IMG/VR virus record: IMGVR_UViG_3300044625_001412 | Span: 1 to 25,799 of that record | Direction: 5' to 3' (one strand) | Origin: a virus | Length of the DNA: 25,799 nt | Part shown: piece by piece, positions 2,332 to 25,633 of the stretch | Position numbering within the stretch: position 1 is the first letter of the stretch | Layout: each line of letters opens with the position of its first letter | The notes under the pieces: generated by a model | What the model was told of the DNA's origin: nothing | The model's database searches: none | What the model saw: the letters and a program-made list of their open reading frames with translations, nothing else | Made by a program: the position numbers and the translations under genes

Positions 2332-2733
2332 TTACGGGACGGCTCGGGTTCCGATGCGGAAGCAACGAATGATTTCGTTCGCTGCCGTAGCGGCTTCCAG
2401 AGCGATGTAGTAGCAGACCTGACCGCTGGTTCCGGCCGTTGCGAGGCCGCTAGCGTTGGAGGTCACGAGAGCACCCGCGGTGATTGCGGCGCTCGCCTCA
2501 ATCTGCACGGTGTTGCTGGGCTGCAGGCTGATCGGATCGCCAGCCTCAGCATGAAGAGTGTTGCCCGTGTTGCCCGGGACGCCACTCTTCACGGAGCCGT
2601 CGGTGACGCCCACGATGTTGTCCGAGGCCGCATTGGCCTGCGCACCCTGAAATGCACCCGAGAGTTCGACCATGCGGAACGGCGCGATGTTTCCGCTTGC
2701 GACGAGTTCGGGCGTGAAGCCGAATTCTGCCAT
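2332..2733 (-). CDS. Decoration-type capsid protein, paralogue 1 of 5
   Basis: This 133-residue protein sits directly upstream of the capsid gene, the usual place for a capsid stabilising/decoration protein (DUF2190-like). It has the three blocks shared by five proteins in this window: IVGVTDGSV, a GDPISLQPSNTVQIEAS strand pair, and a C-terminal IALEAATAANEIIRCF. N-terminal PELVASGNIAPFRMVEL matches the 'G.i.pfr.v' opening of paralogues 2 and 3. It starts with ATG at 2733 behind AAAGGAAGGA. Position next to the capsid makes it the best candidate for the abundant shell decorator; the others may be minor variants or vertex/fibre proteins. Confidence 0.65.
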   Translation of the reverse strand: MAEFGFTPELVASGNIAPFRMVELSGAFQGAQANAASDNIVGVTDGSVKSGVPGNTGNTLHAEAGDPISLQPSNTVQIEASAAITAGALVTSNASGLATAGTSGQVCYYIALEAATAANEIIRCFRIGTRAVP

Positions 2734-2748: not shown

Positions 2749-3384
2749 TTACCGCTTGTTGAGGCGGCTGTTGATTGCCTTCTTGAACTCCTCGGGCTTG
2801 CCAGCGAACTCGCGGACAAGATCTCCGACCTGACGGGCGTCAATGTCGGCCGAGGGGAGGGCCGAACGGCCCATGTCAATGCGAACACCCATGGGGTCGC
2901 GGCTGAACAACTCGCGCCACGACTCAAGCAGCGCCGAGGCGTCCGAGGATGCCGAGAGTTCCGCGATCAGGCGCGGACGGTGCGCCGCCGGGATGCGGTA
3001 GCCGTCTGCCTCCATCGCGTCTAGTTCGCGGCCGAAGCGCTCGCGGCTGATCTCAGCCTTGAGTGCCTTGATCTCACGCTGCATCTTGGCGTTCTCGCGA
3101 CGCATAGCGAAGACATCGGCGCGACCGGGGCGGGATGCCGGGAACATCATGGCCTCTGCCTCCTCCTCTTCCTCCTCCTCGCCGTGGGAGTCGATGTCGA
3201 TGTGGACGCCGTCGCCCGCACCCTGCTCCTCGGCGAACTGCTCAGCGAGCATGTCCTCCGCGGCCATCTCCTCCTTCTTCTCCTTCTTCTCTTCCTCGCC
3301 CTCCCCGAAGTGCTTCTTCATCATGGACTTCATCTCGTCCATTTCGCACTTCAGGGCGGCGATCTCCTTGCTGTAGTCCGCCAT
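2749..3384 (-). CDS. Nested scaffold protein from an internal start in the protease gene
   Basis: Within the protease/scaffold frame, an ATG at 3384 (residue 187, MADYSKEIAALK) is preceded by CGAAGGAA seven bases upstream. That is a better ribosome site than the one at the long form's 3942 start. It would give a 211-residue product made only of the coiled-coil, acidic and C-terminal helical parts, that is, a free scaffold. Lambda C/Nu3 and Mu I/Z use exactly this in-frame nested arrangement. The ribosome site is seen; use of the start is inferred. Confidence 0.5.
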   Translation of the reverse strand: MADYSKEIAALKCEMDEMKSMMKKHFGEGEEEKKEKKEEMAAEDMLAEQFAEEQGAGDGVHIDIDSHGEEEEEEEAEAMMFPASRPGRADVFAMRRENAKMQREIKALKAEISRERFGRELDAMEADGYRIPAAHRPRLIAELSASSDASALLESWRELFSRDPMGVRIDMGRSALPSADIDARQVGDLVREFAGKPEEFKKAINSRLNKR

Positions 3385-3942
3385 GTTGGTTTCCTTCGTG
3401 GTGGGGACATACGTGGATTGCCCGCCGCCGACTGTCCCCATGTCGAAGCGGATTGGTCTTGCGAAAGTGACGAGTTCGCCGTTTCGCGTGAAGTGCGTGT
3501 CGGGCAACGGACGGCGCGGGGTTTCACGGCCGAGCAGCGCAACCTCAGACAGGTGGTTCTGGTCAGCCCAGATCTCGGCGCTGCGGCGCGGGAACGCATT
3601 GGTCGCCAGCAACTTGTCGAACACCGGCTTCTCAACCTCGCAGTCACCGATGATGTATGCGACGCCGTTTCGCTCTTCGTAGCCGATACGCGTGAAGCGA
3701 CCGACAGAGGACTTCGGCTCGCTGCCGTCCTTGTCGTGCATCACAACGAGCCTCGGATACGAACCACGCGTCATGTATTTCGCGGTCGCGTTCACGATTT
3801 CCATGACGCGCTCATTGTCGAACTTCTTGAGTTCCGGGTCGCTATCGCCGTCGATGGACGGGTCATAGGCGCAGAACACCTCAAGACCATGAATCGTGAC
3901 CGTCTTGCCGTTCTCGGAGATTTGATGCGAGGTCGACATCAT
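2749..3942 (-). CDS. Prohead protease fused to scaffold
   Basis: This 397-residue protein (from the ATG at 3942) probably cleaves scaffold and capsid arms during prohead maturation. Residues 60-160 carry a protease-type pattern common in phage head peptidases: SVGRFTRIGYE, then AFPRRSAEIW and LSEVALLGRETPRRPLPD. Residues 187-300 are a charged coiled coil with Glu/Lys runs (EEEKKEKKEE, HGEEEEEEEAEA) typical of scaffolds. A linker RPGRA occurs at 271, and the C-terminal 300-397 helices may bind capsid. Catalytic residues cannot be assigned by eye. The start is ambiguous: ATG-ATG at 3942/3939 abuts the upstream stop (TAATG) but lacks a Shine-Dalgarno, whereas GTG at 3981 has AAGGTGA upstream. 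An internal start at 3384 is listed separately. Confidence 0.72.
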   Translation of the reverse strand: MMSTSHQISENGKTVTIHGLEVFCAYDPSIDGDSDPELKKFDNERVMEIVNATAKYMTRGSYPRLVVMHDKDGSEPKSSVGRFTRIGYEERNGVAYIIGDCEVEKPVFDKLLATNAFPRRSAEIWADQNHLSEVALLGRETPRRPLPDTHFTRNGELVTFARPIRFDMGTVGGGQSTYVPTTKETNMADYSKEIAALKCEMDEMKSMMKKHFGEGEEEKKEKKEEMAAEDMLAEQFAEEQGAGDGVHIDIDSHGEEEEEEEAEAMMFPASRPGRADVFAMRRENAKMQREIKALKAEISRERFGRELDAMEADGYRIPAAHRPRLIAELSASSDASALLESWRELFSRDPMGVRIDMGRSALPSADIDARQVGDLVREFAGKPEEFKKAINSRLNKR

Positions 3943-4367
3943 TATTCTGGAGGCGCGACTTGATTCACGAAATCGTTCCACATGCTCACCTTTGCGACCC
4001 AGATTATCTCGCCAGCCGATCCGCCCTCAAGAGCAGTAAAGAATACGAACGTTGGGTTCAGAGTGGTCGAAGCGACTTGGCCGCGCCCGTCACCCGTCAA
4101 TCCAACGCCGGCTCCCGGCGCTACTGAGCCAGCAAGTTCCAACTGCAACCACTGCCCATTCTGAAGCGAAACGACTTCGCCATCCGTTGCGTGCATCGTT
4201 GCAGCGAAGTTAGAAACGCTGCCGTCCGTTACTCCGATGTGGTAGGTGAAGGCGTCATACAACCTGACTCGCCATTGCTTCCCGCCCCCCGGCACCTTGC
4301 TGACAGCGCGGAACGGAGGGATATTTCCCTCTGCCACAAGGTTCACGGTGTTGTTCATCGTGCTCAT
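3942..4367 (-). CDS. Decoration-type capsid protein, paralogue 2 of 5
   Basis: This 141-residue protein has the same three blocks as the other family members: HIGVTDGSV, GEVVSLQNGQWLQLELAGS, and FFTALEGGSAGEIIWVAKV. The N-terminal LVAEGNIPPFRAVSK aligns with paralogue 1. It lies between the minor head gene and the protease gene; its TAA overlaps the protease ATG. The start is ATG at 4367, with a second Met at residue 4; neither has a good Shine-Dalgarno. Probably a beta-rich virion surface protein. It has no recognisable catalytic motif. Confidence 0.62.
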   Translation of the reverse strand: MSTMNNTVNLVAEGNIPPFRAVSKVPGGGKQWRVRLYDAFTYHIGVTDGSVSNFAATMHATDGEVVSLQNGQWLQLELAGSVAPGAGVGLTGDGRGQVASTTLNPTFVFFTALEGGSAGEIIWVAKVSMWNDFVNQVAPPE

Positions 4368-4415: not shown

Positions 4416-5528
4416 TCACCCGCTGATGAAACCGGGGTCAGGGAACTGCCCGCTGTCAATCAATTGCTGCCGACGCCCATTGTGCTTCTTGATTGCTGCA
4501 TAGTCCGGAACACCCTCCTCATCCGTCCAACCCCTTGAAGCCGCCACAACCAGCGGGATCGGCTTCCATCGGCATCGGCAGTTGAAGCCGCCGGGTGTGG
4601 GAATCCCTTGTGCGTCGATCTGCTCTACCGTCGCCACGTAACCGTCCATGGCCTTGTGGGTATCACGGGTGCGGTTGTCTTTCGTGGAGGTGAACTGCAT
4701 GACAGGGACGAACGCCTTGACCTCCGAATCGCGAACGATGTCAAGTTGCCCCTGTGTCTGCGCCCGGTTGATGTTGGTGCGGTAGACCGTTTCCAGCCGG
4801 GCGTCCGTCAAGTCCGTCCCGGTGGCCAGAACTGTCTGCTCAATGAAGTCGCCGACACCCAACTTTGTCAACCTCTTGCCCGCAACCGACTTCGCCACCT
4901 TGCCCTCAATGACCTTGGCTAGGAGTTCTTTCGTCGCTTCTACCTGCTTCTGCGACATTCCCGTGACGAAGAACGCGCTCTGCGCCAGTTGCTGAACACC
5001 GGGTGATCGACGCCTCCGGACTTCCGCTGGCAAGGCTGCAGGAGCGCGGCCCTCTGGAGGGCGGGTGAGGGCCGGAAAGATCACTCGGGCGAGTTCTGGG
5101 CTCGTCTCCACGATCTTGCGAAGGGCAGTCGCAGCCTCGTCCCTCCGCATCTCGTTGGCTGCAGCGAAGGCGTAGTCAATCAGACGATCCCACTTCTCCC
5201 TCGTCAGCGGGATAGCCGTCATGAATCGCGAGATGACCTCCCGGGCCGGGCCAGATTCGAATCGCAGGAGCATCTCCGGAACATCCCTGTCAAACGTGAT
5301 CGGCTTCGGGATGGGCTTCTTGACACCTATCCCAGCCTCAATGAGGGTCTGTCCTGCACCTGTCGCCCACGAAGCCAGCAGTATCGCGGCCGTGTCCTGC
5401 GCCCAACGATCCCATTCGGCTGCGCCGCCGCCGCCGCGGACCTGCGCGGCCACGGCCTTTCGGTACGCGTCCTTGCCATCAGCGAGCAGGGAGCGGAACA
5501 GGTCGTTGATGGACGGCCTAACGGCCAT
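4416..5528 (-). CDS. Minor head / head morphogenesis protein (Mu gpF, SPP1 gp7 type)
   Basis: This 370-residue protein is an internal minor capsid protein needed for head assembly or DNA ejection. The diagnostic domain is near residues 255-320: ARLETVYRTNINRAQTQGQ, then FTSTKDNRTRDTHKAMDG and PTPGGFNCRC, where the conserved H and the Cys pair of the Mu-F-like domain are present. The N-terminal 200 residues are helical. Start chosen is ATG at 5528 (MAVRPSINDL), overlapping the portal stop by 11 bases, with TTGAGG upstream; an in-frame TTG at 5537 is also possible. It follows the portal gene as in Mu-like and many other phages. Confidence 0.85.
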   Translation of the reverse strand: MAVRPSINDLFRSLLADGKDAYRKAVAAQVRGGGGAAEWDRWAQDTAAILLASWATGAGQTLIEAGIGVKKPIPKPITFDRDVPEMLLRFESGPAREVISRFMTAIPLTREKWDRLIDYAFAAANEMRRDEAATALRKIVETSPELARVIFPALTRPPEGRAPAALPAEVRRRRSPGVQQLAQSAFFVTGMSQKQVEATKELLAKVIEGKVAKSVAGKRLTKLGVGDFIEQTVLATGTDLTDARLETVYRTNINRAQTQGQLDIVRDSEVKAFVPVMQFTSTKDNRTRDTHKAMDGYVATVEQIDAQGIPTPGGFNCRCRWKPIPLVVAASRGWTDEEGVPDYAAIKKHNGRRQQLIDSGQFPDPGFISG

Positions 5529-6990
5529 GATCCTCAAGCAGCCATGCGCGGCGGGAGAAGGACGCTGGCTGCATCGGAGAAGGTTGCCCCTCCGGAGCGG
5601 CGGATTCGCCGAGCATCGCCGTCAGGGGATTCGCGCCGCCTTGCGACGAACCGAGGATCGGCTCATCCTGCTTCGGCTCCGACAAACCGAGCAAGTCTCG
5701 CACTTCCCTCTCGGCCACCTTGCCGCCCATGTCGACGAACGCCCGGATCGCCTCCAGCCGCTCCTTCGGGTCAGGACGCTCGGGTGCAAACTCAAACCGG
5801 AGCGCCGAGATCTCTTCTTCCGCCGCGCCAAGCATCTTGGCGATTACGCGGACGAAATCGTTGGTCATGCTGTCCGCAAGCGCATCGGCGTGATACCGGA
5901 TGATTCTGGAAAGCGTGTCGGCATGCAGCGAAGCAACGCCTGAACCCATGCCCGTCGCACCGGACTCGCTTGACAGGTTCTGGCCGAGTATCGCCTCCTT
6001 GATCTTGCCCGAGAACCAGTTGACCAGTTCCATGAAGACCTGCGCACGGCCAGCGTTCGGCTCCTTGATGTCGATGTCGTAGATCTTCTCCGTTCCCGAC
6101 TGCGGGATAAGAACCGAGTTGTCGTTCGTCAGGTTGGCGAGAACCTGCTCCATCATCTCTCGCCCCGCATCTTGGCCGAGCGGGTAATAGCCCACGCGAA
6201 TCCCCATCGCGTATCGCTCTGCGTAGGTGATCGCGTCCTGCAGAATCTCCTGCTTCGCCAACCACATGAACCAGCAGACGTCGCGTGCGCCTACGCCTCG
6301 GTAAATGGACTCAGACGCGTTTGGGTCGTTGAAGTCAGGCGCGGCAACAAACACGCGATGAAGCACGATTGCACGTCGCTCCTGCTCCGTGAAGATATGC
6401 ACGCGGCTGTCAAAGCCGATGTTCTGCGCGTTCGGCCCATGGTTGCCGTAGTCCGCACCGACGCGCATTGCGAGGTTGCCGCGCTGGTCGTAAGCAAGGG
6501 TGTCCGGGTGGAACGGATACCACTCCTTGACGGACACGCCGAGGCGCGGATCTCGCTGATACACCAAGTTGCAGGCCGAGTTGCCATACCACACCGCCTC
6601 GTGCATGGAACGCACGAAATCGCTGCGGCGCGGCATTGATTCGAAGATCTTGCCGATGCGCTCGGCCAGCGCCTGAAGTCGAGGGTTGTCGCTGTCGTCG
6701 GCAACTACCGCCCATTCAAGGGACGCGAGCGTGACCTGTAGCGAGCGCAGGACGCCTTCGATGTCGGCGTCCGCACGCATCATCTGCTGATACTGCGGGT
6801 TCAGCCTGTATGCGAGGCTGCTGTTCCGGAGCATCTTGTCCGCGGTCGTGAAGAACGATCGCTGGACTTCTACGGTGGTTGCCAGCGGGTTCGTAATCCC
6901 GCGCTGAACCGGAGCCGGGAGCGGCTTGCGAGGACGCTGCTTGGGCGTCAACCCGTTAGCCATCGCGTTCGCGTCAGGGGTGTCGCTCAT
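5518..6990 (-). CDS. Portal protein, Mu gp29-like (DUF935 type)
   Basis: This 490-residue protein should form the dodecameric portal through which DNA is packaged. Typical features of the gp29-like family are visible: the early ADADIEGVLRSLQVTLASLEW region, EAVWYGNSACNLVY, the PFHPDTLAYDQRGNLAMR segment, and ARDVCWFMWLAKQEILQDAITYAERYAMGIRVGYYPLG, split by loops, ahead of a GTEKIYDIDIKEPNAG stretch. Start is ATG at 6990, which overlaps the previous stop as TAATG and has AGGA about seven bases upstream; a longer in-frame reading lacks such a site. It overlaps the minor head gene by 11 bases. Confidence 0.87.
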   Translation of the reverse strand: MSDTPDANAMANGLTPKQRPRKPLPAPVQRGITNPLATTVEVQRSFFTTADKMLRNSSLAYRLNPQYQQMMRADADIEGVLRSLQVTLASLEWAVVADDSDNPRLQALAERIGKIFESMPRRSDFVRSMHEAVWYGNSACNLVYQRDPRLGVSVKEWYPFHPDTLAYDQRGNLAMRVGADYGNHGPNAQNIGFDSRVHIFTEQERRAIVLHRVFVAAPDFNDPNASESIYRGVGARDVCWFMWLAKQEILQDAITYAERYAMGIRVGYYPLGQDAGREMMEQVLANLTNDNSVLIPQSGTEKIYDIDIKEPNAGRAQVFMELVNWFSGKIKEAILGQNLSSESGATGMGSGVASLHADTLSRIIRYHADALADSMTNDFVRVIAKMLGAAEEEISALRFEFAPERPDPKERLEAIRAFVDMGGKVAEREVRDLLGLSEPKQDEPILGSSQGGANPLTAMLGESAAPEGQPSPMQPASFSRRAWLLEDHGR

Positions 6991-7439
6991 TAGATTCCTG
7001 AGAGGCAAGGATGCCCGGTTAGTCTTCGTGCCCAGAACACCTCGCCGGGAGCGAACCGCTCCAGCGCGATGAACTGCGCTAGTTGCCATTGATTCTGCGA
7101 GGCTTCGTAGAACGGTATGACGGTTCCGTTGCTGCCTAGCCGCAGCAGTTTGCCAGCGTTCCAGAACGAATATGCGGCACCGTCTGTTCCTGCGCGAACA
7201 AGAACGTTGAGCCCCGTCTGCAGCGTAACCAAGCCGCCCGTTACGGCATGAAACTGCGTTTCGTTCATTGCAACCGAGCCATCGGTCACTCCGATGATTG
7301 GAACGTCTTGTAATGACGGGTCGGTGTTCTCAAACACCCCCGGCATAACACGGAAGTTTACTTGAGCCATAGTTACAACCGAGAACGGCAGAATGTTCAT
7401 CTCGGCTGTCAGCGGAGGGCAGGTGGATGTATTTAGCAT
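6990..7439 (-). CDS. Decoration-type capsid protein, paralogue 3 of 5
   Basis: This 149-residue protein has IIGVTDGSV, GGLVTLQTGLNVLVRAG and FIALERFAPGEVFWARRL, the three family blocks, plus an N-terminal LTAEMNILPFSVV that matches paralogues 1 and 2. It is the last of three consecutive family members just before the portal gene, and its TAA overlaps the portal ATG. Start ATG at 7439 lies ten bases after the previous stop; the Shine-Dalgarno is poor, suggesting translational re-initiation. No enzyme motif is seen. Confidence 0.6.
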   Translation of the reverse strand: MLNTSTCPPLTAEMNILPFSVVTMAQVNFRVMPGVFENTDPSLQDVPIIGVTDGSVAMNETQFHAVTGGLVTLQTGLNVLVRAGTDGAAYSFWNAGKLLRLGSNGTVIPFYEASQNQWQLAQFIALERFAPGEVFWARRLTGHPCLSGI

Positions 7440-7448
7440 CGCGTCGGC

Positions 7449-7940
7449 TCAGTGAGGAACGATTGCCGGAGGAAGTACTGAATACGGCCATCCATAAACA
7501 CGAGCAGCCCAAACGATCTGACCTGCCGCCGTGCTGTTCTCCATGGCAACGAAATGAACTATCTGCGCGGTCAACTGAAACTCCGGCTGCGGGATGTTTC
7601 CGACCCGCCCATCGGCTCGTGATTGCAGATAAGCACCAGCGGTAAATGCTTCCGCGGATTCTACTTGACAGTAATCCGACGCCTGAAGCGTGACCTGACC
7701 GTCATACTCGGCGTGAAGTTGCTTACCCTCGGCATACACCGAGCCATCCGTGACGCCGACGATTGGGCTGGCTATCTCTTTCTCATATGGACCGGTCGCG
7801 GTTCCAACCAGCGGATAGTCAAGCGCGAATGCAGTCTTGTCCGAGATGTTCGCTGCCCGATACACGCTGACGCAGCGAAACGGGAACAGATCATCCTCGC
7901 CACGCCACACCAACGGGACTGTGATTCGATTATGACTCAT
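7449..7940 (-). CDS. Decoration-type capsid protein, paralogue 4 of 5
   Basis: This 163-residue protein (from MSHNRITVP at 7940) contains IVGVTDGSVY, GQVTLQASDYCQVESAE and FVAMENSTAAGQIVWAARV, the shared family blocks, with a longer insertion after the N-terminal strand than paralogues 1-3. The chosen ATG overlaps the end of the upstream paralogue by 11 bases. A longer in-frame reading upstream would run deeply into that gene and starts with low-quality, unrelated sequence, so it was not used. Confidence 0.6.
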   Translation of the reverse strand: MSHNRITVPLVWRGEDDLFPFRCVSVYRAANISDKTAFALDYPLVGTATGPYEKEIASPIVGVTDGSVYAEGKQLHAEYDGQVTLQASDYCQVESAEAFTAGAYLQSRADGRVGNIPQPEFQLTAQIVHFVAMENSTAAGQIVWAARVYGWPYSVLPPAIVPH

Positions 7941-8490
7941 AACGAGCGAAGTATGATCGGAGGATGATGGCGGAAATAATGTCGCCGGACTGACCCGGCT
8001 CAAGTGCCTGCACCGCAGCATCTAGAAGCGTAAATCCCGTTGCGACGTTTCCCTCGAACGGAACTACCCACCCAAGGTTCTGGTCGTAAACCGTGTTGAG
8101 GAAATCGCCGCACTTGACGTTATAGGTGTTTATTGCTTCCCCGGCAATCGTCTGCCATCCGATCTGAACCTGCACGATTGGGCCGTTCTGTACAGGAATC
8201 AACTGTCCCGGCATGCACGCGGTTGGGCTCTGCTTCAAGTCTCCACTGGTTGTGTGACTATACGGCGGCACCGTTTGCCCCAGCCAGACGCCATCGCTTG
8301 ATGCCGCCGAGCCATCTACAAAGAGCACCCTCGGCACGGCAAACGATTGAAGGAGTTGCCCCAAGAAACTGGGCTGCGCCGCTCCAAGATTGTTTCGGAT
8401 TGAGATCGGGCTGTATACCGGAATCTGGCTAGATGCAACTAGCGGGACGCCTCCCGATTCGCCGCTGAAGAATGACGAGTGAACGCTCAC
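7930..8490 (-). CDS. Divergent decoration-type capsid protein, paralogue 5 of 5
   Basis: This 186-residue protein starts at a GTG (8490) just after the 567-residue gene. It is the most divergent family member. In place of GVTDGSV it has LFVDGSAAS, but the second block (GQLIPVQNGPIVQVQIG) matches GEVVSLQNGQWLQLELAG of paralogue 2 well. The C-terminal ALEPGQSGDIISAII matches the ALE...GEIIW block. N-terminal 50 residues (SSFFSGESGG, SPISIRNNLGAAQ) are unique and could be a capsid-binding or fibre-like extension. Confidence in homology is moderate. Confidence 0.52.
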   Translation of the reverse strand: MSVHSSFFSGESGGVPLVASSQIPVYSPISIRNNLGAAQPSFLGQLLQSFAVPRVLFVDGSAASSDGVWLGQTVPPYSHTTSGDLKQSPTACMPGQLIPVQNGPIVQVQIGWQTIAGEAINTYNVKCGDFLNTVYDQNLGWVVPFEGNVATGFTLLDAAVQALEPGQSGDIISAIILRSYFARYES

Positions 8491-8492
8491 GG

Positions 8493-10196
8493 TTAGATCT
8501 CGCCTCGGCGCTTGAGGTCCAGCGCGATCGCGACTGCCTGCTTCTGCGGCTTGCCCTCGTGAATGAGCGTGCGGATCTTGTCGGCCACTGCTGCGTCCTT
8601 CGCGGCGATCATCTTGAGGCCAGAGCGCACGTCTTCCGACTCCTCTGGCTGAGCGGCCTCGGACTTCGGCACGCAGTCGGGGACGGTCTTGCCGTCCTTC
8701 TGCTTCGTGCCGACCGCCTCGTAGCCCTGCCAGCAGGCGTCGGACAGCGCGTTCGTGGACTTCGCGCCGGGGCGGGAGGCGCGAAGCGTCATGGGCTTGC
8801 TGATCCGAATGCCTTTGCGTTCCGCCAACGCGATCAACTTCTTGTACAGAAGCCAATCGCGATCGTTCGCGGTCATCTCGTCCCGGTATCGCGTCATCGC
8901 CTTGGTCGCCTCGTCAACGAATGAACCCGCCGACGGTTCATCGTTCTTGACGACGGACATCGCATCCAAGAGTACATCGCTCAAGGTGAACTTCGCCTTC
9001 GCGCCGGGGCGATTGTTCCAAGCCTGCGGATACTTTTTCATGTCTCTGGCGTCGGCTACGCAAATCTCGGCGATGCTCTTCGCTTGAAAGACAAGTCCCT
9101 TCGCGCCATCGAGAATCGCATCTGCTTCTGCACGCCTGTACGCGGCTTTGAGCTCTTGGAGTTCATCCATCAGAGCCCTTTCTTCCATCTTGAAATCCGA
9201 AGGCACAGACGCAAACTTCACCTTCGCGCCGGGGCGGGAGGACTTGAACGCCGCATCTACGGCCCTGTCGCCAAACTCAGCGCGAACGATGTCCGAGATC
9301 AGCGATCCCTTGTCCCATTCGCTGATCTTCTGCTCTCCGATTGAGACTCGACCGCGCTGTATCTTTGACTTCCACAGGTCGAAGACTTTTGCCTTCGGCT
9401 GCGACTTGAGTTCGTTGTAACGATCAATGATCTTCTGCGAGTTGTCCATCGCCGCCTTCGCGCCGGGGCGGGCGTGATAGGAACCTCCCGAATAATCGTC
9501 GGCCACCGAGACATTGACCATTGGCGAGATCTTGTTCTTCCTCAGCACCTCACGGATCGCGGCGACGTCGGACTTGTCGTAAACGATGATCCCCTTCGCG
9601 TCGGTGTCGACAGCGAAGTCATACATCAGTTCAAGGATTTTCTTCCGCTGCGGGTGACCAGCGAGTCTCGCGGCAAACTCGGTTCTCTTTCCGGGGCGGG
9701 AGGCGCGGCTTCGCAGCGCGAGAATCTCGTGCCCTGTCTCTTCGGCAAGTTCCAGCAGATCGTCGTCTCCGACGCGCTTCGCGTGCGCGATCGCCTCATC
9801 CACGATCTTCTCCATGGCTTTGTGATTTGAAATCGTGACCGGCTTCATGAGTTTCGCAGCCAGTTGATCTGAGCGTTCCATTCGTGCATTCTCCTGCTTG
9901 TCCTTGAGTTGCTCAAACTTTCGGGCCGCCCACGACTTTCCGGAATCGCCTCCCCAAAGGAGCCAAGCGATGTATCCTGCATCGTCCTCGCCGCCCGACT
10001 TGTTCTTCTCGTGACGATTGAAGAACGCATGCATCCGCCGAACCGTCTCTGGGGACAGGTGCTTGCGGTTGCTGATGTCCCTCGCTCGCGCCACACCGAT
10101 GGCCGTTCCGCCCTTCCCGTGCTTCTTTCGGAGTTCAAGGCCACGCCTCGCGTTTGAGGCCATCTCCTCAGTCGGTTGAAGGTCGATCTCGGCCAT
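8493..10196 (-). CDS. Modular structural-region protein punctuated by RPG(A)K linkers
   Basis: This 567-residue protein lies between the large terminase gene and the decoration/portal genes. Residues 12-92 form a conserved phage domain (RRGLELRKKHGKGGTAIG, then LSPETVRRMHAFFNRH and AWLLWGGDSGKSW), often found fused to prohead or portal-region proteins. RPG(A)K motifs occur at residues 167, 243, 321, 396 and 475, spaced 75-79 residues apart and separating segments of dissimilar sequence. The C-terminus has SDACWQGYEAVGTKQKDGK and PDCVP, then EGKPQKQAVAIALDLKRRG, both recurrent small phage modules. The DNA at each linker carries CCGGGGCGG. Start ATG at 10196 has GTAGGA upstream. Function unknown; likely virion-associated or a maturation cofactor. 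Confidence 0.62.
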   Translation of the reverse strand: MAEIDLQPTEEMASNARRGLELRKKHGKGGTAIGVARARDISNRKHLSPETVRRMHAFFNRHEKNKSGGEDDAGYIAWLLWGGDSGKSWAARKFEQLKDKQENARMERSDQLAAKLMKPVTISNHKAMEKIVDEAIAHAKRVGDDDLLELAEETGHEILALRSRASRPGKRTEFAARLAGHPQRKKILELMYDFAVDTDAKGIIVYDKSDVAAIREVLRKNKISPMVNVSVADDYSGGSYHARPGAKAAMDNSQKIIDRYNELKSQPKAKVFDLWKSKIQRGRVSIGEQKISEWDKGSLISDIVRAEFGDRAVDAAFKSSRPGAKVKFASVPSDFKMEERALMDELQELKAAYRRAEADAILDGAKGLVFQAKSIAEICVADARDMKKYPQAWNNRPGAKAKFTLSDVLLDAMSVVKNDEPSAGSFVDEATKAMTRYRDEMTANDRDWLLYKKLIALAERKGIRISKPMTLRASRPGAKSTNALSDACWQGYEAVGTKQKDGKTVPDCVPKSEAAQPEESEDVRSGLKMIAAKDAAVADKIRTLIHEGKPQKQAVAIALDLKRRGEI

Positions 10197-10205
10197 GCGA
10201 TGATC

Positions 10206-11663
10206 CTACCCTGCTGGGAACATCGGTCTACGGGGCATGTTGCTCCCGAACATACGGGTGATCGCGTCCGGTTTCTGTATGGGCTTGACAGCCAGATCGC
10301 TCTTGGAGAGCGAGCCGCGAACGGCTTCGGCGCACAGGTCGACGATGACGTCTACGGTGTCATCGTGGCTCCCTGCGGGAAACGCGAGCATCTCATCGAT
10401 TACAGGCTGAAACGCTGGGAGGACGCGGCCAGCTTCGTCGGTCGGGAATCGGAGTTTCCCTCCTTGGACGAATGGCTGCGCACCCGCCGCACGAAGGTGC
10501 TTGTCTCTGTTGCGCTCGACGGCGAGCATCGGCTGCGTTGTCATCTCCCGGAACTGGTCGAAGATGCCTTTCTGTGGGCCGTTGGCCTCCGCGAGTACGA
10601 CCGAGACGCCTCGCCTTGACAGCAGATCCGCCGCCATCCGCGCAAACGTGGGGAACGATTCGCGGACACGGATGATGTCCGTGACATAGCAATCACGCTT
10701 CCCATCCACCTCCGCCACGATGCAGACGGAGTAGTCAGGATCATCTCGTTCCTGCTCCCGCTTGCCGTATCCCCAATCCAGCGCGGCGATGGTTCTCGTC
10801 ACCTTCGGCCGATCTCCTTGCCGGTAGTGCCCAATCCAGCCCGGCTGGAAGATCAGCAGGTCGCTTGAAAGCGGGATCAGTTCGTAGGCGCGGGCATAAG
10901 CCATCGCGCCCATCTCTTCGCGCTTCTTTCGCAGGTATTCCTCCGTGAACACCTCAGGCCACGGACTGATGTCCCCGCGACAGGGCAGGCGCAGCAGCGT
11001 GCTGTCCTGCTCGTGGTATCGACGCCAATCCGCGGTCACGTCATCGGTGTGGAACGGCGTTGCCGTCTTCCAAACGCGGCTGTCAAACTCCGCGGCGGGA
11101 TCAAGCATCGGCATCCAGATGTTTGCCACCGCCTCCTTCACTTGATCGCGGAGCGTTGGCTGCAGGACGGCGTTCCGCAGGTCGCAGATGTCATCGAACC
11201 AAAGGACGTCCGCACGGCCACCCGTCCGGCCGAACACGCCGGAGCCCTGAACGGAAGGGTCGCGCCGTGATGGCAAACCCGGCGCTGTCACGCTCCATGA
11301 TGTCACGGCTTCTTCGCCAGCCTTGATCTTGACACCGGGGAACACGGCTCGGAACGCGTCGGATCGGATGATCTCGCGGATGAACTTCGTCGTTTGCCCT
11401 GCGGCCTCGTCGTTCTGGCTGACGATCTTGAACCGGGTTCCGGGCCTGACTCCCAGCCACCACGCTGTCATGAACGCCATCGTCGTCGTCTTGGCGTGTC
11501 CACGAGGGATCTCGGCGTACCAAGAGAACGCTGTCAATGCCTGATGGATGAGTTCGCGTTGGATGTCGCTGACTGGCTTGTTCATCGCCAGAGCGATGAA
11601 GCCGAGCGGATTCTCGCGTGCGTCTGCGACCGTCTGTTGTGGCAGAAGAGTCTGTCTCGTCAC
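10206..11663 (-). CDS. terL: Terminase large subunit (packaging ATPase-nuclease)
   Basis: This 485-residue protein packages DNA into proheads. Seen directly: a Walker A-like PRGHAKTT at 53-60, Walker B DVLWFDD at 152-158, a coupling-motif candidate KTATPFH near 199, and a C-terminal RNase H-like nuclease with ALDWGYGKRE and a final HDDTVDVIVD supplying acidic residues. Length is normal. It begins with GTG at 11663, overlapping the stop of the preceding gene as GTGA. Its position next to a small helical protein fits the usual terS-terL order. The packaging strategy (cos or pac) cannot be told from this sequence alone. Confidence 0.93.
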   Translation of the reverse strand: MTRQTLLPQQTVADARENPLGFIALAMNKPVSDIQRELIHQALTAFSWYAEIPRGHAKTTTMAFMTAWWLGVRPGTRFKIVSQNDEAAGQTTKFIREIIRSDAFRAVFPGVKIKAGEEAVTSWSVTAPGLPSRRDPSVQGSGVFGRTGGRADVLWFDDICDLRNAVLQPTLRDQVKEAVANIWMPMLDPAAEFDSRVWKTATPFHTDDVTADWRRYHEQDSTLLRLPCRGDISPWPEVFTEEYLRKKREEMGAMAYARAYELIPLSSDLLIFQPGWIGHYRQGDRPKVTRTIAALDWGYGKREQERDDPDYSVCIVAEVDGKRDCYVTDIIRVRESFPTFARMAADLLSRRGVSVVLAEANGPQKGIFDQFREMTTQPMLAVERNRDKHLRAAGAQPFVQGGKLRFPTDEAGRVLPAFQPVIDEMLAFPAGSHDDTVDVIVDLCAEAVRGSLSKSDLAVKPIQKPDAITRMFGSNMPRRPMFPAG

Positions 11664-12230: not shown

Positions 12231-12989
12231 TCACGTGGTCCGGCCGTCCCTTCTCCGGAGCGCGTCGAGGTAGATGCCCCGGTAGTCGAGCAGGACGTCA
12301 AGCCGATCTCGGGAGTTGGGTTCCATCCGTGCTCGCTGTGCGCCCCACGCGGCGAACACCTCTCGGGCGGCGTTCTCGTCGATCCGGGCCTCGTAGTCGG
12401 AGTGGAGTCCGCCGGGGTTGTCGGAGAACTTGTTCGCGAAGGCCGTCCATTCTGATCGGATGGAGATCATGCACCTGTCATGAACGAGGCCGACCATGTC
12501 CTTGTCATGCTTGAGGCGGAAGCGGTAGCGCAGGTCACCGATGCGCTCGGCATGGATGGCGACCACGGACTCGCATCGGGCGTGCGCCTTGACAGGCTTG
12601 GTTGCCGACCATGCGAACTGCTGGTACTGCATGGCCCCGATGGCGCAGTTGGGCTGCGCGATGACTTGCTGTGCTGCGTCGATGACGGTCGGCGCCTCGG
12701 TCTTCTGTACGCGCCTGTTGACGACCAAGCCCATGCTGGTGATGTCGTCGTCGATCATCCAGAACCACTTGTGGCCGCTGAACTTGGCGTGGTCAAGGAT
12801 GAAGTTCCGTGAGTAGCAGAGTCCTTCATTGTCCTTGTCAAGGACGACGATGTTCGGCACGCCGGCTCTGCGGTACACGGGCGCGTCCTGCGGCTCGACC
12901 ACTACGGTGAACGGCAGTCCCCTCAGGAGGGTGAACGACTGTCCTTCGGGTCGCCCCTTGCTCGGGATGTAGATCGGCCAAGGCTTCAT
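12231..12989 (-). CDS. TET-associated type glycosyltransferase (DNA base hypermodification)
   Basis: This 252-residue protein has a GT-A-like layout: PIYIPSKGRPEGQSF at the N-terminus, VVVEPQDAPVYRRAG, LDKDNEGLCYSRN, and a metal/nucleotide-binding DDD in WFWMIDDDI at 78-83. This pattern matches phage and fungal glycosyltransferases found beside TET/JBP dioxygenases, proposed or shown to glycosylate oxidised 5-methylcytosine in DNA. Start is ATG at 12989, overlapping the dioxygenase stop as ATGA, so the two are coupled. By this reading it would add sugar to 5-hydroxymethylcytosine made by its neighbour. The sugar and donor are unknown. Confidence 0.72.
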   Translation of the reverse strand: MKPWPIYIPSKGRPEGQSFTLLRGLPFTVVVEPQDAPVYRRAGVPNIVVLDKDNEGLCYSRNFILDHAKFSGHKWFWMIDDDITSMGLVVNRRVQKTEAPTVIDAAQQVIAQPNCAIGAMQYQQFAWSATKPVKAHARCESVVAIHAERIGDLRYRFRLKHDKDMVGLVHDRCMISIRSEWTAFANKFSDNPGGLHSDYEARIDENAAREVFAAWGAQRARMEPNSRDRLDVLLDYRGIYLDALRRRDGRTT

Positions 12990-13810
12990 TCGGTCTTCCC
13001 TTTCGCTGCGCGGCGTCGCTCGTTCGCGGTACGGGCGCGGTTGAACGCTTTGACTTCCTCGCCGGGCGGCTCGCATCGCCACATGCCTTCAAGCGAATAG
13101 AACACCACCGTGTATCGGGCAGCGTTGTCGGACAGCCTTCGGAACGGTGTCACGCCGTGCAGAAGCGACTGTCCGTCGAAGAGCAGGAGGGACTGATCCC
13201 CGATGGCGAACGCCGTGTCAAGTTCCGGCACGGTGAGGTGACCACCTTCGATCTCGTTCTTGAACCCCAGCATCGCGGAGTTGACACTCTTGAAGTTGCC
13301 TCGGTCGAAGTGGTAGGGGAGGGGGTTGTTCTGGTTGACGATGCCGCTGGTGAACGGGGTGTCAGCGATGCGGTACTCGGGAAGCACCTTGCTCGCGATC
13401 TCTGCGTGCTTCGCCGCCTGTTCGGGGAACGCGGTCTTGTAGCACTCGTACGCCGTCTTCGCTGCTTCGACCAGCACCTCATGTTCAAGCGGCTGTGCTG
13501 CCGCCAGCGAGGTCTTTCGGCATGGCTGGTTGCGCAGGGGTAGCCGGGGCGCATATCCGAACGTCCTTGCCCGCGTGAACATGGCCTCTTTCGCGGCGCG
13601 GAACGCTTCGATGTACTTGATGCGTCCGAGCGCAGCGCGGAGGGTCGAGAAGTCCTTGTCGAGCCTGTGCCAGTAGGCCAGCACGGGCTTGCCATCGACC
13701 TCCACGATCGTGTCCTCCTGCACGAAACGGGCGCAGTCGGAGAGCGCGGCCTTTCGGCGACGCCATTGCGAGAGGTCAATCGTCCGCTTCGGCACGCTCA
13801 GATACTGCAT
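12986..13810 (-). CDS. TET/JBP-family 2-oxoglutarate/Fe(II) dioxygenase
   Basis: This 274-residue protein likely oxidises 5-methylcytosine (or thymine) in phage DNA. The double-stranded beta-helix residues are visible: HFD at 167-169 in PLPYHFDRGNF, the GGHLTVPEL turn at 189, the distal metal His218 in LLHGVTPF, and Arg232 in ARYTVVFYS for 2-oxoglutarate. This arrangement fits the phage TET/JBP group rather than AlkB. Start chosen is ATG 13810 (MQYLSVPKR) with AGAAGG upstream; it overlaps the ParB-like gene by 35 bases. No cytosine-5 methyltransferase is in the window, so the methyl substrate must come from elsewhere in the genome or the host. Confidence 0.75.
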   Translation of the reverse strand: MQYLSVPKRTIDLSQWRRRKAALSDCARFVQEDTIVEVDGKPVLAYWHRLDKDFSTLRAALGRIKYIEAFRAAKEAMFTRARTFGYAPRLPLRNQPCRKTSLAAAQPLEHEVLVEAAKTAYECYKTAFPEQAAKHAEIASKVLPEYRIADTPFTSGIVNQNNPLPYHFDRGNFKSVNSAMLGFKNEIEGGHLTVPELDTAFAIGDQSLLLFDGQSLLHGVTPFRRLSDNAARYTVVFYSLEGMWRCEPPGEEVKAFNRARTANERRRAAKGKTE

Positions 13811-14444
13811 GTCCTGCCTTCTCAAGGAGATAGACGAGCACGTCTGCGTTCGTCTCAAGCGAGTTGTCATCGGCGATCTGCGCGAGTGCCTCGACGATCA
13901 GACCATATTGCGACGCGGTGTAGGTGAACACGAGTTGCCGCACCTGCGAGGCATCGTATTCCTCAAGGGTGCGAGTGAAGCCGGACGGCAGTTCTGAGAT
14001 TCCGCCAGCGACCTGCCCGAGGTTTGCCACCGCTTCGGGAGCGCGTTCCAGCAGGGAGCGCAGTTCCTCATCCGAGTATCCGGCTGCGTTGGCTAGCGCG
14101 GAGTCGACCTCACGCAGCTCCGAGAGTTGGGCACGGAGGGTGTCATCGTCCCATGCGGCCAGTTCGCTCGAGCGGTTGTCGGCGATGGCGAAGGCTCGCG
14201 CCTCGTCTGCGGACAGGTTCGTGCGCGAGACCCACAGTTCCTCCCATCCGAGACGCTTCGCTGCCTCAAGCGTGCCGTTTCCGGCGATGACGGTGTTGTC
14301 GGCAAGCACGACAACGGGCCGCTGCTGCCCGAACTTGTTGAGCGAGGCCATGATCGCCTCGATGTTGCGCTCGGGGTGTCGGCGTGCGTTCTTCGGGTCG
14401 GAGGTCAGTCTTTCGATCCGGACGCGTTCGTGCTTCTCTGTCAC
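13776..14444 (-). CDS. ParB/sulfiredoxin-fold domain protein
   Basis: This 222-residue protein has an N-terminal ParB-like domain: RIERLTSDPKNARRHPERN, FGQQRPVVVLADNTVIAGN, and GTLEAAKRLGWEEL, followed by the LSADEARAFAIADNR helix. These are the standard blocks of phage ParB-N proteins, with GNGTLEAA at the position of the GENR-type nucleotide loop. The C-terminal 100 residues are unassigned. Such proteins commonly accompany phage DNA methylases and base-modification enzymes. GTG start at 14444 overlaps the HTH gene stop (GTGA). A nuclease, CTPase or specificity role in DNA modification is possible; chromosome partition is less likely here. Confidence 0.75.
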   Translation of the reverse strand: MTEKHERVRIERLTSDPKNARRHPERNIEAIMASLNKFGQQRPVVVLADNTVIAGNGTLEAAKRLGWEELWVSRTNLSADEARAFAIADNRSSELAAWDDDTLRAQLSELREVDSALANAAGYSDEELRSLLERAPEAVANLGQVAGGISELPSGFTRTLEEYDASQVRQLVFTYTASQYGLIVEALAQIADDNSLETNADVLVYLLEKAGHAVSERAEADD

Positions 14445-17074: not shown

Positions 17075-17113
17075 CCGCCGCCCCGGAACCCCACGACGGA
17101 ACCGGGGCGGCGG
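17075..17113 (+). terminator. Terminator-like 12-bp hairpin after unit A
   Basis: CCGCCGCCCCGG (17075-17086) and CCGGGGCGGCGG (17102-17113) pair perfectly across a 15-base loop, sixteen bases after the glycosylase stop. No U-tract follows, but the following 140 bases are almost pure G/C with further stems. Likely ends or stabilises transcript A. Confidence 0.55.
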
Positions 17114-17254
17114 CACGGGCGGGGCGCAGGACGCCCGCTGCGGGGCCGGGGCCGCGCCGGGGGCGGGCGGGGGCCGGGGCCGGGGCGGGCCGTGCAGGGG
17201 CCGTGCAGGGGCCGCAAACGGGCCGCGCCCGGGGGCGGGCGAAAGATTCTTGAC
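17114..17254. repeat. GC-rich spacer with 11-base tandem repeat, similar to 23675-23771
   Basis: An almost G/C-only stretch. GGGCCGTGCAG is repeated in tandem at 17187-17197 and 17198-17208, then GGGGCCG, AAACGGGCCG and a GCGGGCGAAAGATT end. The region at 23700-23771 has the same order (GCAGGGGCCGT, CAACGGGCCG, GGGGCGACCGCAAGATT), showing that B and C are homologous over about 300 bases including this spacer. Confidence 0.6.
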
Positions 17255-21768: not shown

Positions 21769-21777
21769 TGCCTCAAT

Positions 21778-21817
21778 GGGCCGCGTGGCCCTGTCATCAC
21801 GTTCAGGAGTAGAGATC
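21778..21817 (+). promoter_or_regulatory. Leader D: one hairpin, TGTCA box and ribosome site
   Basis: GGGCC-GCGT-GGCCC (21778-21791) is directly followed by TGTCATCACG and TCAGGAG before ATG 21818. This is a one-hairpin version of leaders A-C: the sequence differs but the order stem, TGTCA, ribosome site is kept. Confidence 0.55.
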
Positions 21818-22654
21818 ATGAACCGTTCGGATTCCATTGGTGCGCTTGTGGCGGCTCTTGCCAAGGCGCAGAAGGCGATCGTCAACCCGGCGCTCGACTC
21901 GGTCAACCCGCACTTCAAGAACAGGTACGCCTCGCTCGCGGCGCACCTCGCCGCGGTTCGCGGGCCGCTCGCCGATCAGGGCATCTCTCTGATCCAGAGC
22001 ATCAGCACGCCCGCCAACGGCGGCGTTTCCGTCACGACGATGCTCGCGCACTCGTCCGGCGAGTGGATCAGCAGCGAGGTTTCGATGCCTCTGCCGGATC
22101 GGGCCACGGCCCAGCAACTCGGCTCGTGCGTGACGTATTTGCGTCGCTATGCAGTTGCCACCTGCTGCCTGATTGTGGGCGACGAGGACACGGACGGGGA
22201 GGAGGATCGGGTCGCACGCAGCAAGCCGACCGAGCCAGCCAAGTATTCCTATGCCGACCGCGCAGAGCGGATCGCCGTGGCGAAGTCCGTTGTGACCGCC
22301 GCCTCGCCCGCGAAGCCAAACGGCCCGCCCAAGGCGAGCGAGGGCGTCGGCAAGAAGTGGCCCGACACGGGTACGGACATCGTGACCGCCGAGAAGGTCG
22401 TTGACCGAGGAACCGGCGTCAATGCGGTGCTCTGCTCTCACCCTTCGCACGGTCGCCAATGGGTGAGCGTTCCGGACAGCATGATCACGAAGGTGCGGCT
22501 CGACAAGCCCATCGAACTGTCATGGGAATGGAACAAGGAGGGGTTCTTCGTGGCGACGAGCGTCGGCGAGGTTCCGGCGAAGGCGAAGCGCGATGACTCC
22601 AAGGCGAAACCCGTCTACGACATGCCGATCACGGACGACGATCTCAAGTTCTGA
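21818..22654 (+). CDS. ERF-family single-strand annealing recombinase
   Basis: This 278-residue protein should anneal complementary single strands during phage recombination. The ERF core occupies residues 5-125: IGALVAALAKAQKAI, NPHFKNRYASLAAHLAAVRG, LADQGISLIQSI, then AQQLGSCVTYLRRYAVAT and CLIVGDEDTDG, the 'GS.iTY.rRY.l....gi..d.DdDg' signature. A Lys/Pro-rich linker leads to a C-terminal domain (AVLCSHPSHGRQWVSVPDSM, SWEWNKEGFFVATSV), possibly for protein partners. It has its own promoter and starts at ATG 21818 with AGGAG upstream. Confidence 0.87.
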   Translation: MNRSDSIGALVAALAKAQKAIVNPALDSVNPHFKNRYASLAAHLAAVRGPLADQGISLIQSISTPANGGVSVTTMLAHSSGEWISSEVSMPLPDRATAQQLGSCVTYLRRYAVATCCLIVGDEDTDGEEDRVARSKPTEPAKYSYADRAERIAVAKSVVTAASPAKPNGPPKASEGVGKKWPDTGTDIVTAEKVVDRGTGVNAVLCSHPSHGRQWVSVPDSMITKVRLDKPIELSWEWNKEGFFVATSVGEVPAKAKRDDSKAKPVYDMPITDDDLKF

Positions 22655-23639: not shown

Positions 23640-23674
23640 CCGGGGCGGGTGACGCCCGTGGTCGCCCGCCCCGG
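23640..23674 (+). terminator. Terminator-like 10-bp hairpin after the ERF unit
   Basis: CCGGGGCGGG (23640-23649) and CCCGCCCCGG (23665-23674) pair across a 15-base loop, twelve bases after the Gp157 stop. Further GC stems follow, including GGGCCG-TCCA-CGGCCC at 23715-23730. This parallels the 12-bp hairpin at the end of unit A. Confidence 0.55.
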
Positions 23675-23771
23675 TTCCCCGCCCCGCCGGGGCGGGCGGG
23701 CGGGGGCCGCGCAGGGGCCGTCCACGGCCCGGCAACGGGCCGTTCGGCGGGGCGACCGCAAGATTTCTGCA
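23675..23771. repeat. GC-rich spacer homologous to 17114-17254
   Basis: Nearly pure G/C, then GCAGGGGCCGT, GCAACGGGCCG and GGCGACCGCAAGATT in the same order as the spacer before module B. It lacks the clean 11-base tandem repeat of that copy. Together with module C it forms a diverged repeat of about 300 bases. Confidence 0.58.
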
Positions 23772-23870: not shown

Positions 23871-23926
23871 CGGGCATGTCGCCCGGCCCGTCCCCCCGGT
23901 TCGGGGTGTCACGAAAGGAACAAGTC
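23871..23926 (+). promoter_or_regulatory. Leader C: two hairpins, TGTCACGAA box and ribosome site
   Basis: CGGGC-ATGTC-GCCCG (23871-23885) is identical to leader A. The second stem reads CCCC...GGGG (about 23892-23906) instead of CCGCC...GGCGG: one base pair is exchanged on both sides (G:C to C:G), consistent with selection for pairing. TGTCACGAAAGGAACAAG follows, before ATG 23927. Confidence 0.62.
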
Positions 23927-24901: not shown

Positions 24902-25633
24902 ATGTGCGGACTCTTCGGTATGTACGCCAACTCGCCGCTGTCGATGGCGGCTCTCCCCACCCTCATTCGTGTCGCCAACTCGCAGGTTCACCGTGGTCAC
25001 CACGCGTTCGGCCTCGCTTGGGTCAACGAGGACCGTCAGGTGTTCGCGTTCAAGCGACCCGGCGCTGTCACCGATCACCCCGAGGACGTCGCTCGCGGCG
25101 AGGGTGCGCTGGGCCTCATCGGCCACACGCGGTGGGCGACCCACGGCTCGTACGACGACAACGCCAACAACCACCCGCACCCCTTCTCTTACAAGGATCG
25201 CACGTGCTACCTCGCGCACAACGGCGTGATCTGCAACTACGAGCAGATCGCCGCCGAGCGCGGCCTCACGATGCGGACGCAGTGCGACTCCGAGGTTCTC
25301 GCCCGGCACATCGAGGACGGCTCAGGCCACATCCTCGACCGCGTGGTGGCTGCGATCGCCGATGTCTCCTCCTACGCACCGTGCTGCGTGACGGTCGTGA
25401 CCCACAAGGGAATCGTCCTCGCCCGGCGCGGCAATCCGCTGTTCTGGTCTGACACGGGCAACCTCGCTTGGTTCGCTTCCACCCGCGCCGCTCTCCCGGG
25501 TCGTGTGTACGAGGTTCCTGACAACCGCGCCTTCTTCATCCCGAGCGGCCCCGGCGGAGTGCGCGAAGCCAAGTTGCGGCGCCGCGAAGCGACGACGATG
25601 CGCTTCGTGGGCTCTGACCTGTTCACCGAGTAA
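24902..25633 (+). CDS. Class II glutamine amidotransferase (N-terminal nucleophile)
   Basis: This 243-residue protein should hydrolyse glutamine to deliver ammonia. After Met removal Cys2 (MCGLFGMY) is the nucleophile. VHRGHHAFGLAW at 29-40, GHTRWATHG at 74-82, HPHPF at 91, HNGVICNY at 106-113 and CDSEVL at 128-133 match the glutaminase domain of GFAT/PurF-type enzymes. It is stand-alone, with no sugar isomerase or PRTase domain. It follows the amidoligase by 33 bases with the same ACGAAAGGAACAAG ribosome site, so the pair is probably co-expressed and functionally linked: ammonia donor plus ligase, or making an amidated metabolite or protein tag. Confidence 0.87.
   Translation: MCGLFGMYANSPLSMAALPTLIRVANSQVHRGHHAFGLAWVNEDRQVFAFKRPGAVTDHPEDVARGEGALGLIGHTRWATHGSYDDNANNHPHPFSYKDRTCYLAHNGVICNYEQIAAERGLTMRTQCDSEVLARHIEDGSGHILDRVVAAIADVSSYAPCCVTVVTHKGIVLARRGNPLFWSDTGNLAWFASTRAALPGRVYEVPDNRAFFIPSGPGGVREAKLRRREATTMRFVGSDLFTE

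What the first reader, a model, noticed from the sequence alone, without database searches (positions are those of the whole stretch)
8493..10196. 567-residue protein divided by RPG(A)K linkers every 75-79 residues
Linkers at residues 167, 243, 321, 396 and 475 are regular, while the segments between them look unrelated. This suggests exchangeable cassettes of fixed size bounded by a recombination-prone linker (DNA core CCGGGGCGG), a mechanism to swap domains. A similar RPG linker (residue 271) occurs in the protease/scaffold.
Basis: partly seen in the sequence, partly recalled or inferred. Interest (0 to 1): 0.65.

Follow-up and report, generated by a model that had tools for sequence, protein, structure and literature searches.

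The report
Phage gene of swappable protein cassettes
A family of uncultured phages carries a gene built like a string of interchangeable protein pieces, joined by a short, nearly invariant DNA linker at which the pieces are swapped between phages, so that even close relatives carry different pieces.

Summary
Linkers sit at residues 167, 243, 321, 396 and 475. A 99.3-99.8% identical relative (L001) has the same gene minus exactly one cassette, joined at the 15-bp linker core. In IMG/VR I parsed 156 distinct arrays with 498 cassettes in 175 sequence families, shuffled in order and content. Same-slot arrays in phages with 97-99% identical flanks are the same in 2 of 49 pairs and share no cassette in 27 of 49. 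Identity between shared cassettes falls from 97% to 30% across the linker. The linker is conserved as DNA: four-fold-site identity is 0.91 at 60-75% identical backbones, against 0.38 and 0.52 in two conserved modules of the same proteins. Arrays occupy two fixed slots in the head gene block. 16 of 19 long contigs encode an ERF or RecT annealing recombinase, none an integrase. Likely mechanism: short-homology recombination at the linker. Likely function, inferred only: a head-packaged protein whose cassettes are effector domains. Cassette size is not fixed (64-147 aa); host and cassette functions are unknown.

The parts
8493..10196 (-). cassette-array gene, 567 aa (P0001)
   Evidence: relatives
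9897..10196 (-). constant N-module (residues 1-100), also found at the N terminus of the protease/scaffold in other members and in head genes of isolates
9702..9896 (-). helical region between N-module and first linker (residues 101-165)
   Evidence: pLDDT blocks mostly 68-84
9681..9701 (-). linker 1, SRPGKRT (degenerate; DNA TCCCGCCCCGGAAAGAGAACC)
9474..9680 (-). cassette A (family F36; also in L001, L035, L060)
9453..9473 (-). linker 2, ARPGAKA
9240..9452 (-). cassette B (family F31; also in L001, L133 and, as the last cassette, L002)
9219..9239 (-). linker 3, SRPGAKV
9015..9218 (-). cassette C (family F45; also in L001, L152; in L241 at another position)
8994..9014 (-). linker 4, NRPGAKA
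8778..8993 (-). cassette D (family F58; absent from L001, present in L133)
8757..8777 (-). linker 5, SRPGAKS
8664..8738 (-). ACWQGYE...VPDCVPK motif, shared with other phage proteins (e.g. cyanophages)
8496..8627 (-). constant C-terminal tail (KIRTLI.EGKPQ.QAVAIAL..KRRGE)
3112..3135 (-). linker-like SRPGRADV in the protease/scaffold protein (2749-3981)
10206..11663 (-). terminase large subunit, upstream neighbour (slot A lies after it)
5518..7089 (-). Mu-type portal
4416..5537 (-). MuF-like head protein (slot B lies after it in other members)
21776..22654 (+). ERF single-strand annealing recombinase, the candidate exchange enzyme
   Evidence: Pfam ERF, 2.2e-15

Best explanation
The gene is a variable slot in the head-gene block. 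It has a constant N-module and a constant C-tail, with a string of unrelated small domains between them. Every domain boundary carries a version of the same roughly 21-bp DNA word (TCCCGCCCCGGCGCGAAGGCG, read as SRPGAKA). It serves twice: as a flexible peptide linker and as a short in-frame patch of homology. Shown by sequence: cassettes are gained or lost, reordered, found in both genomic slots and shared between divergent phages, with junctions inside the linker and the frame kept. Inferred (about 0.75): the phage's annealing recombinase (ERF, or RecT in some) anneals linkers in mixed infections or within one replicating genome. Inferred (about 0.5): the protein is carried in the procapsid by its N-module, which the protease/scaffold bears instead in other members, and is ejected with the DNA; the cassettes are small early effectors, for example against host defence, which would explain fast turnover. 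Inferred, weaker (about 0.3): the head protease also cuts at the linker. The confidence given is for cassette exchange at the linker by homology-based recombination.
For: L001 against the window: flanks 99.3-99.8% over about 11.5 kb, exactly one cassette missing, junction at the 15 bp shared by its two linkers. L035/L060 give a hybrid linker with the crossover inside it; L119/L084 a one-cassette difference between 22-bp repeats. Junction profile: 280 and 306 cassette pairs, identity about 0.97 inside and 0.3 beyond the linker. Same-slot array pairs with 97-99% flanks: 2 of 49 same order, 27 of 49 no shared cassette. Cassettes at 96-100% nt identity between phages whose flanks are 72-74% identical. 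38 of 78 multi-member families occur in both slots. Exact core in 293 of 357 RPGAK linkers although the scans left third bases of R, P, G and A free; four-fold-site identity 0.909 against 0.384 and 0.517. Consecutive exact cores in the same frame in 207 of 208 cases. Seven linker-linker spacings of 20 aa or less. ERF in 13 and RecT in 3 of 19 long contigs, integrase in 0, resolvase over cut-off in 0. Found without using the linker: 64 of 80 portal-selected loci carry an array, 35 of 38 of those at least 9 kb long. Differences between same-family cassettes concentrate at third codon positions (4655 against 1284 and 914), so they are selected as proteins.
Against: The shared word is 15-22 bp, below the about 30 bp given as minimal for Red or RecA pairing (passage in PMC2327257); another passage there cites 5-13 bp events with RecET at very low frequency. 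Three of 19 long contigs show neither ERF nor RecT, though they may be incomplete. Some linkers are degenerate, such as the window's first, so the exact word is not strictly required. In the closest phage pairs (85-95% flanks) linkers are no more conserved at silent sites than the tail or N-module (0.882 against 0.890 and 0.931). No exchange has been watched, and no isolate was found. Virion location and effector function have no direct evidence; no cassette matched a named anti-defence family convincingly (one search gave three weak PADLOC hits).
Confidence: 0.85

Rival explanations
1. A dedicated site-specific recombinase or endonuclease recognises the linker DNA and moves cassettes, as in integrons or shufflons.
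For: Linker DNA is nearly invariant over about 21 bp and junctions are precise.
Against: Tyrosine integrase in 0 of 19 and resolvase over cut-off in 0 of 19 long contigs, with controls ringing in 14 and 10 of 14 genomes. Degenerate linkers also take part, and L060 carries a hybrid linker with an internal crossover. An unknown enzyme or an endonuclease was not excluded.
Confidence: 0.08
2. The linker is conserved only as a peptide, for example a head-protease cleavage site or an interdomain spacer, and domain shuffling at it is incidental.
For: A related motif lies between the protease and scaffold parts in 17 of 108 protease frames. Linkers are predicted disordered in a low-confidence model.
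Against: A peptide constraint cannot explain 0.91 identity at silent sites in divergent phages or exact cores in 293 of 357. Cleavage may well exist in addition.
Confidence: 0.05
3. The silent-site conservation reflects a translation or RNA signal between domains (pausing, structure), not recombination.
For: The same codons recur at most boundaries.
Against: It does not predict that identity between arrays changes exactly at the linker. Not tested directly.
Confidence: 0.03
4. Metagenome assembly chimeras joined at repeated linkers.
For: All arrays come from uncultured viral contigs; linkers are repeats.
Against: Linker identity (15-22 bp) is shorter than common assembly k-mers (recalled, not tested). 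Three orders of at least 3 cassettes recur in contigs of different sample numbers, one of them 7 cassettes long. L001 and the window agree over about 11.5 kb around the array.
Confidence: 0.02
5. Ordinary tandem repeat protein whose units have diverged.
For: Regular spacing of 75-79 residues in this one protein.
Against: Unit families are unrelated in sequence (46 of 12,720 pairs); spacings run 64-147 aa (5-95%); one array model shows an all-helical and a strand-rich cassette (low confidence); one family is a free-standing gene in isolated phages.
Confidence: 0.02

Closest known systems
T-even phage internal proteins (Ip1-3, ip loci)
   Same: Small non-homologous proteins unified by an N-terminal packaging signal, variable between relatives; Ip1-3 block distinct type IV restriction enzymes (PMC12373910, abstract and passages read).
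   Different: Whole genes with one signal each, not domains strung in one reading frame; no repeated in-frame DNA linker is described in the passages read. Packaging and injection are established there, inferred here.
Polyvalent proteins (Iyer et al. 2017, PMC5512222, abstract and passages read)
   Same: Many unrelated domains in one polypeptide, encoded beside portal/terminase/MuF genes, proposed to be injected.
   Different: Those are recognised by catalogued, often enzymatic domains; these cassettes are small and nearly all unassigned, and are bounded by a uniform DNA linker. 'Linker' occurs 0 times in that text.
Mosaicism by Rad52-like phage recombinases (PMC3945230, PMC2327257, passages read)
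   Same: Exchange at short or imperfect homology by Red-beta, RecT or Erf; flanking short conserved sequences are mentioned as one route.
   Different: There the homologies flank genes or gene blocks; here one word is repeated in frame inside a single gene and kept at silent sites.
Intragenic domain mosaicism of phage proteins (PMC10684548, passages read)
   Same: Ongoing domain shuffling in phage proteins.
   Different: That survey classes known domains by protein function; 'linker' and 'breakpoint' occur 0 times in its text.
Integron cassette arrays (features recalled)
   Same: Works like an open, orderless array of exchangeable units.
   Different: No integrase found; units are domains in one ORF, not genes.

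Membership tests
Polyvalent proteins | several unrelated domains in one polypeptide | tested here: met
   175 cassette families; 46 of 12,720 pairs of the first 160 families similar; by sequence only
Polyvalent proteins | encoded with phage packaging genes | tested here: met
   MuF found in 101, portal in 93, TerL in 73 of 124 array loci
Polyvalent proteins | contains catalogued effector or enzymatic domains | tested here: not met
   P0001: no Pfam family at E<=1. 110 of 159 representative cassettes scanned: 39 Pfam families at E<=0.05, each in one or two members, best a DUF
Polyvalent proteins | injected into the host | not testable with these tools
   needs virion proteomics or injection assay
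T4-type internal proteins | shared packaging module on otherwise unrelated proteins | tested here: inconclusive
   N-module on 64 array frames and 35 protease frames, never on both in one locus; targeting itself untested
T4-type internal proteins | present in the head and cleaved by the head protease | not testable with these tools
   no isolate
Integron | tyrosine integrase with the array | tested here: not met
   0 of 19 contigs; contigs may be incomplete
Integron | units are genes with attC sites | tested here: not met
   units share one ORF; cores in the same frame in 207 of 208 intervals
Shufflon / invertible array | invertase and inverted sites | tested here: not met
   resolvase over cut-off in 0 of 19; linkers are read in the same direction within an array
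Tandem-repeat protein | units homologous to one another | tested here: not met
   (sequence level)

The most novel reading that the evidence does not exclude
A protein-level counterpart of an integron: an uncultured phage family keeps an open pool of well over 175 domain cassettes. A silent-site-conserved DNA linker makes every cassette compatible with every position, both genomic slots and every member phage, and new domains (even free-standing phage genes) can be captured. The linker's DNA is kept by selection for exchangeability, and the products are ejected effectors tuned to local hosts.
Probability: 0.45. Interest if true: 0.9.

Novelty: new variant of a known kind. Interest (0 to 1): 0.82.

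Why it matters
Short boundary sequences have long been proposed to guide phage mosaicism, but usually between genes. Here one word is repeated inside a gene, with hundreds of natural exchange products to read, so the proposal becomes directly testable with one annealing recombinase and a two-linker plasmid. If the cassettes are ejected effectors, the arrays are a ready catalogue of well over a hundred unknown small domains, already separated by nature, to be screened against bacterial defences.

Tried and rejected
Ordinary repeats, conserved order and assembly chimeras were considered and rejected for the reasons given under rivals.

A genome-wide, Chi-like role of CCGGGGCGG looked possible when 14 copies turned up in the window. 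The contexts show four in array linkers, one in the protease, and most others in GC-rich DNA and inverted repeats near 17078-17188 and 23640-23695, so I dropped it.

Host: the linker pattern in the genome collection (84,980 species) gave 0 stretches, and a portal alignment gave no relative there. In isolated phages the portal matched one record at 26.5% identity and TerL matched 31, at 22.6-25.6% in the 20 listed. No host could be named.

Structure: P0001 with 7 sequences gave mean pLDDT 54.5 and the L121 array with 10 gave 46.7. Foldseek against PDB gave nothing at E<=0.001 for either. A first alignment for folding (A2) misplaced short fragments and was not used.

Family searches of 110 of 159 cassette representatives gave a few scattered matches (Pfam, PHROGs, PADLOC); I give no weight to the three weak PADLOC ones. 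A nucleotide search of one array in isolates found nothing. A PDB sequence search of P0001 gave only one match, at E 0.48.

Papers: searches listed no description of this array (I saw the listings and abstract starts, and opened four of the papers in part); 'RPGAK' occurs in 1 paper, on a trypanosome enzyme. Most subscription literature is not covered.

A result that does not separate the modules, the 85-95% bin, is reported under evidence against. Dropped before counts: duplicate or contained arrays (171 to 138; 235 to 156), cassettes under 30 aa, the window's own copy L012, and loci of named isolates.

Full report
WHAT IS THERE. The window is a fragment of a tailed phage. On the minus strand lie TerL, the gene in question, cement-like proteins, a Mu-type portal, a MuF protein and a protease/scaffold (the last is named from its sequence and position, it had no Pfam match). 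The gene encodes 567 aa with RPG linkers at residues 167, 243, 321, 396 and 475. The exact 15-mer CGCCCCGGCGCGAAG occurs four times, all in this gene, against none in 100 shuffles.

RELATIVES. A protein search of viral contigs returned 11 loci. L001 is the same phage (99.3% and 99.8% over two blocks of 6.2 and 5.3 kb) with exactly cassette D missing. L002 keeps both ends but has other cassettes, and holds cassette B in another place.

THE POOL. A linker scoring matrix was trained on RPGAK contexts; shuffled arrays gave 3 hits above a score of 6 in 55,788 residues. It defined 138 distinct arrays in 124 loci, 442 spacings (median 81, 5-95% 64-147) and 435 cassettes of at least 30 aa in 160 families, 80 with more than one member. 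After adding loci found by portal, the totals are 156 arrays, 498 cassettes and 175 families; 80 families are singletons, so about 16% of further cassettes should be new. The largest family of the first set, F0, sits in 19 arrays with 12 different left and 11 different right neighbours. Of 338 adjacent pairs 295 are distinct and 262 are seen once. Families are unrelated to each other: 46 of 12,720 pairs similar at E<0.01.

TURNOVER. Arrays were masked and the remaining DNA compared. Among same-slot array pairs sharing at least 2 kb: at 99% or more flank identity 5 of 10 have the same array; at 97-99% 2 of 49 (27 share nothing); at 95-97% 2 of 90 (60 share nothing); at 90-95% 1 of 188 (132 share nothing); at 80-90% 0 of 171; at 60-80% 0 of 1165. 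In the other direction, cassettes at 96-100% nucleotide identity occur in phages whose flanks are 72-74% identical; in all, 22 of 652 cassette pairs with enough flank are at least 95% identical with flanks under 85%, 7 with flanks under 75%.

BREAKPOINTS. For pairs of at least 85% identical cassettes with a different neighbour, nucleotide identity is mostly 0.92-0.99 inside, stays high into the linker and falls to about 0.3 just beyond it, on both sides (280 pairs from 45 families downstream, 306 pairs from 39 families upstream). Three single-cassette differences were read base by base. In window/L001 the two ends share 15 bp; in L119/L084 they share 22 bp; in L035/L060 the junction linker has its left part from one linker and its right part from the other, a crossover inside the word. 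Seven of 442 spacings are 20 aa or less, mostly a linker followed at once by another linker, and look like empty cassettes.

DNA OR PEPTIDE? In 357 RPGAK linkers with distinct context, 293 are exactly CGCCCCGGCGCGAAG. Codon entropies are 0.15-0.45 bits at R, P, G, A and K, against 1.8-2.3 elsewhere in the arrays for the first four and 0.56 for K. Shared ancestry is a concern, because the conserved tail also has lowered entropies. I therefore compared four-fold sites between array pairs by backbone distance: at 60-75% flank identity linker 0.909, N-module 0.384, tail 0.517; at 75-85% 0.914, 0.427, 0.571; at 85-95% 0.882, 0.931, 0.890. The random expectation is about 0.3. The linker word is thus held at DNA level across divergent phages, or continually renewed by exchange; either way it is a DNA feature. 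Consecutive exact cores keep frame in 207 of 208 intervals, and cassette differences fall mostly at third positions.

ASCERTAINMENT. Selecting by portal rather than linker (190 relatives, best 80 kept), 64 of 80 loci have an array of two or more linkers, 9 a single linker and 7 none; of 38 loci at least 9 kb long, 35 have an array.

PLACE AND ENDS. By neighbouring genes, 51 arrays lie between TerL and portal, 81 after MuF, and 6 could not be placed. Twelve loci have both, and 38 of 78 multi-member families occur in both slots. 83 of 88 N-terminal regions form one cluster; of 122 C-terminal regions the largest cluster holds 91 and the next 9. The N-module sits on 64 array frames and 35 of 108 protease frames, and no locus has it on both; 20 loci have it on the array with a protease lacking it, 32 on the protease alone (many loci do not cover both genes, and some frames are overlapping copies of one contig). 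In isolates the same module lies in genes annotated as major capsid protein (Synechococcus phage S-CBS1, Roseobacter phage CRP-823) and prohead protease (HGTV-1). This is why I infer procapsid targeting.

MACHINERY. ERF is in the window and in 13 of 19 long array contigs; RecT in 3 of the rest; tyrosine integrase in 0; resolvase in 0 over cut-off, with 3 sub-threshold matches that each contain a stop. Erf of phage D3 was shown to be a recombinase as efficient as Red-beta on 100% and 78% identical substrates (PMC3945230, passage).

CASSETTE CONTENT. Mostly unassigned. The F11 cassette of L064 has free-standing relatives of about 94-100 aa in Rhizobium and Agrobacterium phages, which suggests capture. 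F41 weakly resembles a KOW domain (E 0.0015, below cut-off). In low-confidence models the linkers are disordered, cassettes B and D of P0001 are helical, and one array holds both an all-helical and a strand-rich cassette. The window also carries a TET-type oxygenase and a TET-associated glycosyltransferase, so its DNA is probably modified. T4's small injected proteins protect modified DNA from type IV restriction (PMC12373910), which makes anti-restriction one concrete guess for some cassettes. TET hits appeared in only 5 of the 124 loci, many of which may not cover that region.

VERDICT. Exchange at the linker is shown by sequence; homology-based recombination is the best mechanism; packaging and effector function are reasoned guesses. 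I rate it a new variant of boundary-guided phage mosaicism, unusual because the boundary is repeated in frame inside one gene and the pool is so large.

Noticed in passing
window 12231-13870 (-): TET/JBP oxygenase next to a TET-associated glycosyltransferase: probable glycosylated 5-hydroxymethyl base in the phage DNA.
   Followed up: no
window 2332-2733, 3942-4367, 6990-7439, 7449-8021 (-): Four cement-like genes share a motif like 'GVTDGSV...HA...V.LQ', so the head may carry several paralogous decoration proteins.
   Followed up: no
window 23876-24865 and 24902-25630 (+): An amidoligase next to a class II glutamine amidotransferase, an unusual pair for a phage; possibly a peptide or base modification.
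   Followed up: no
window 17078-17188 and 23640-23695: GC-rich inverted repeats repeating CCGGGGCGG, probably terminators; they account for much of the 9-mer's excess.
   Followed up: partly
L141 and L038, N-terminal region of the array: The N-module is cut short after about 25-40 residues and continues into other sequence, as if recombination also happens inside the module.
   Followed up: no
L010:887-2845 (+), L011:2842-4800 (+): The ACWQGYE..VPNCVP motif also occurs in linker-free phage proteins unrelated to the array, so it seems to be a mobile mini-motif of its own.
   Followed up: partly
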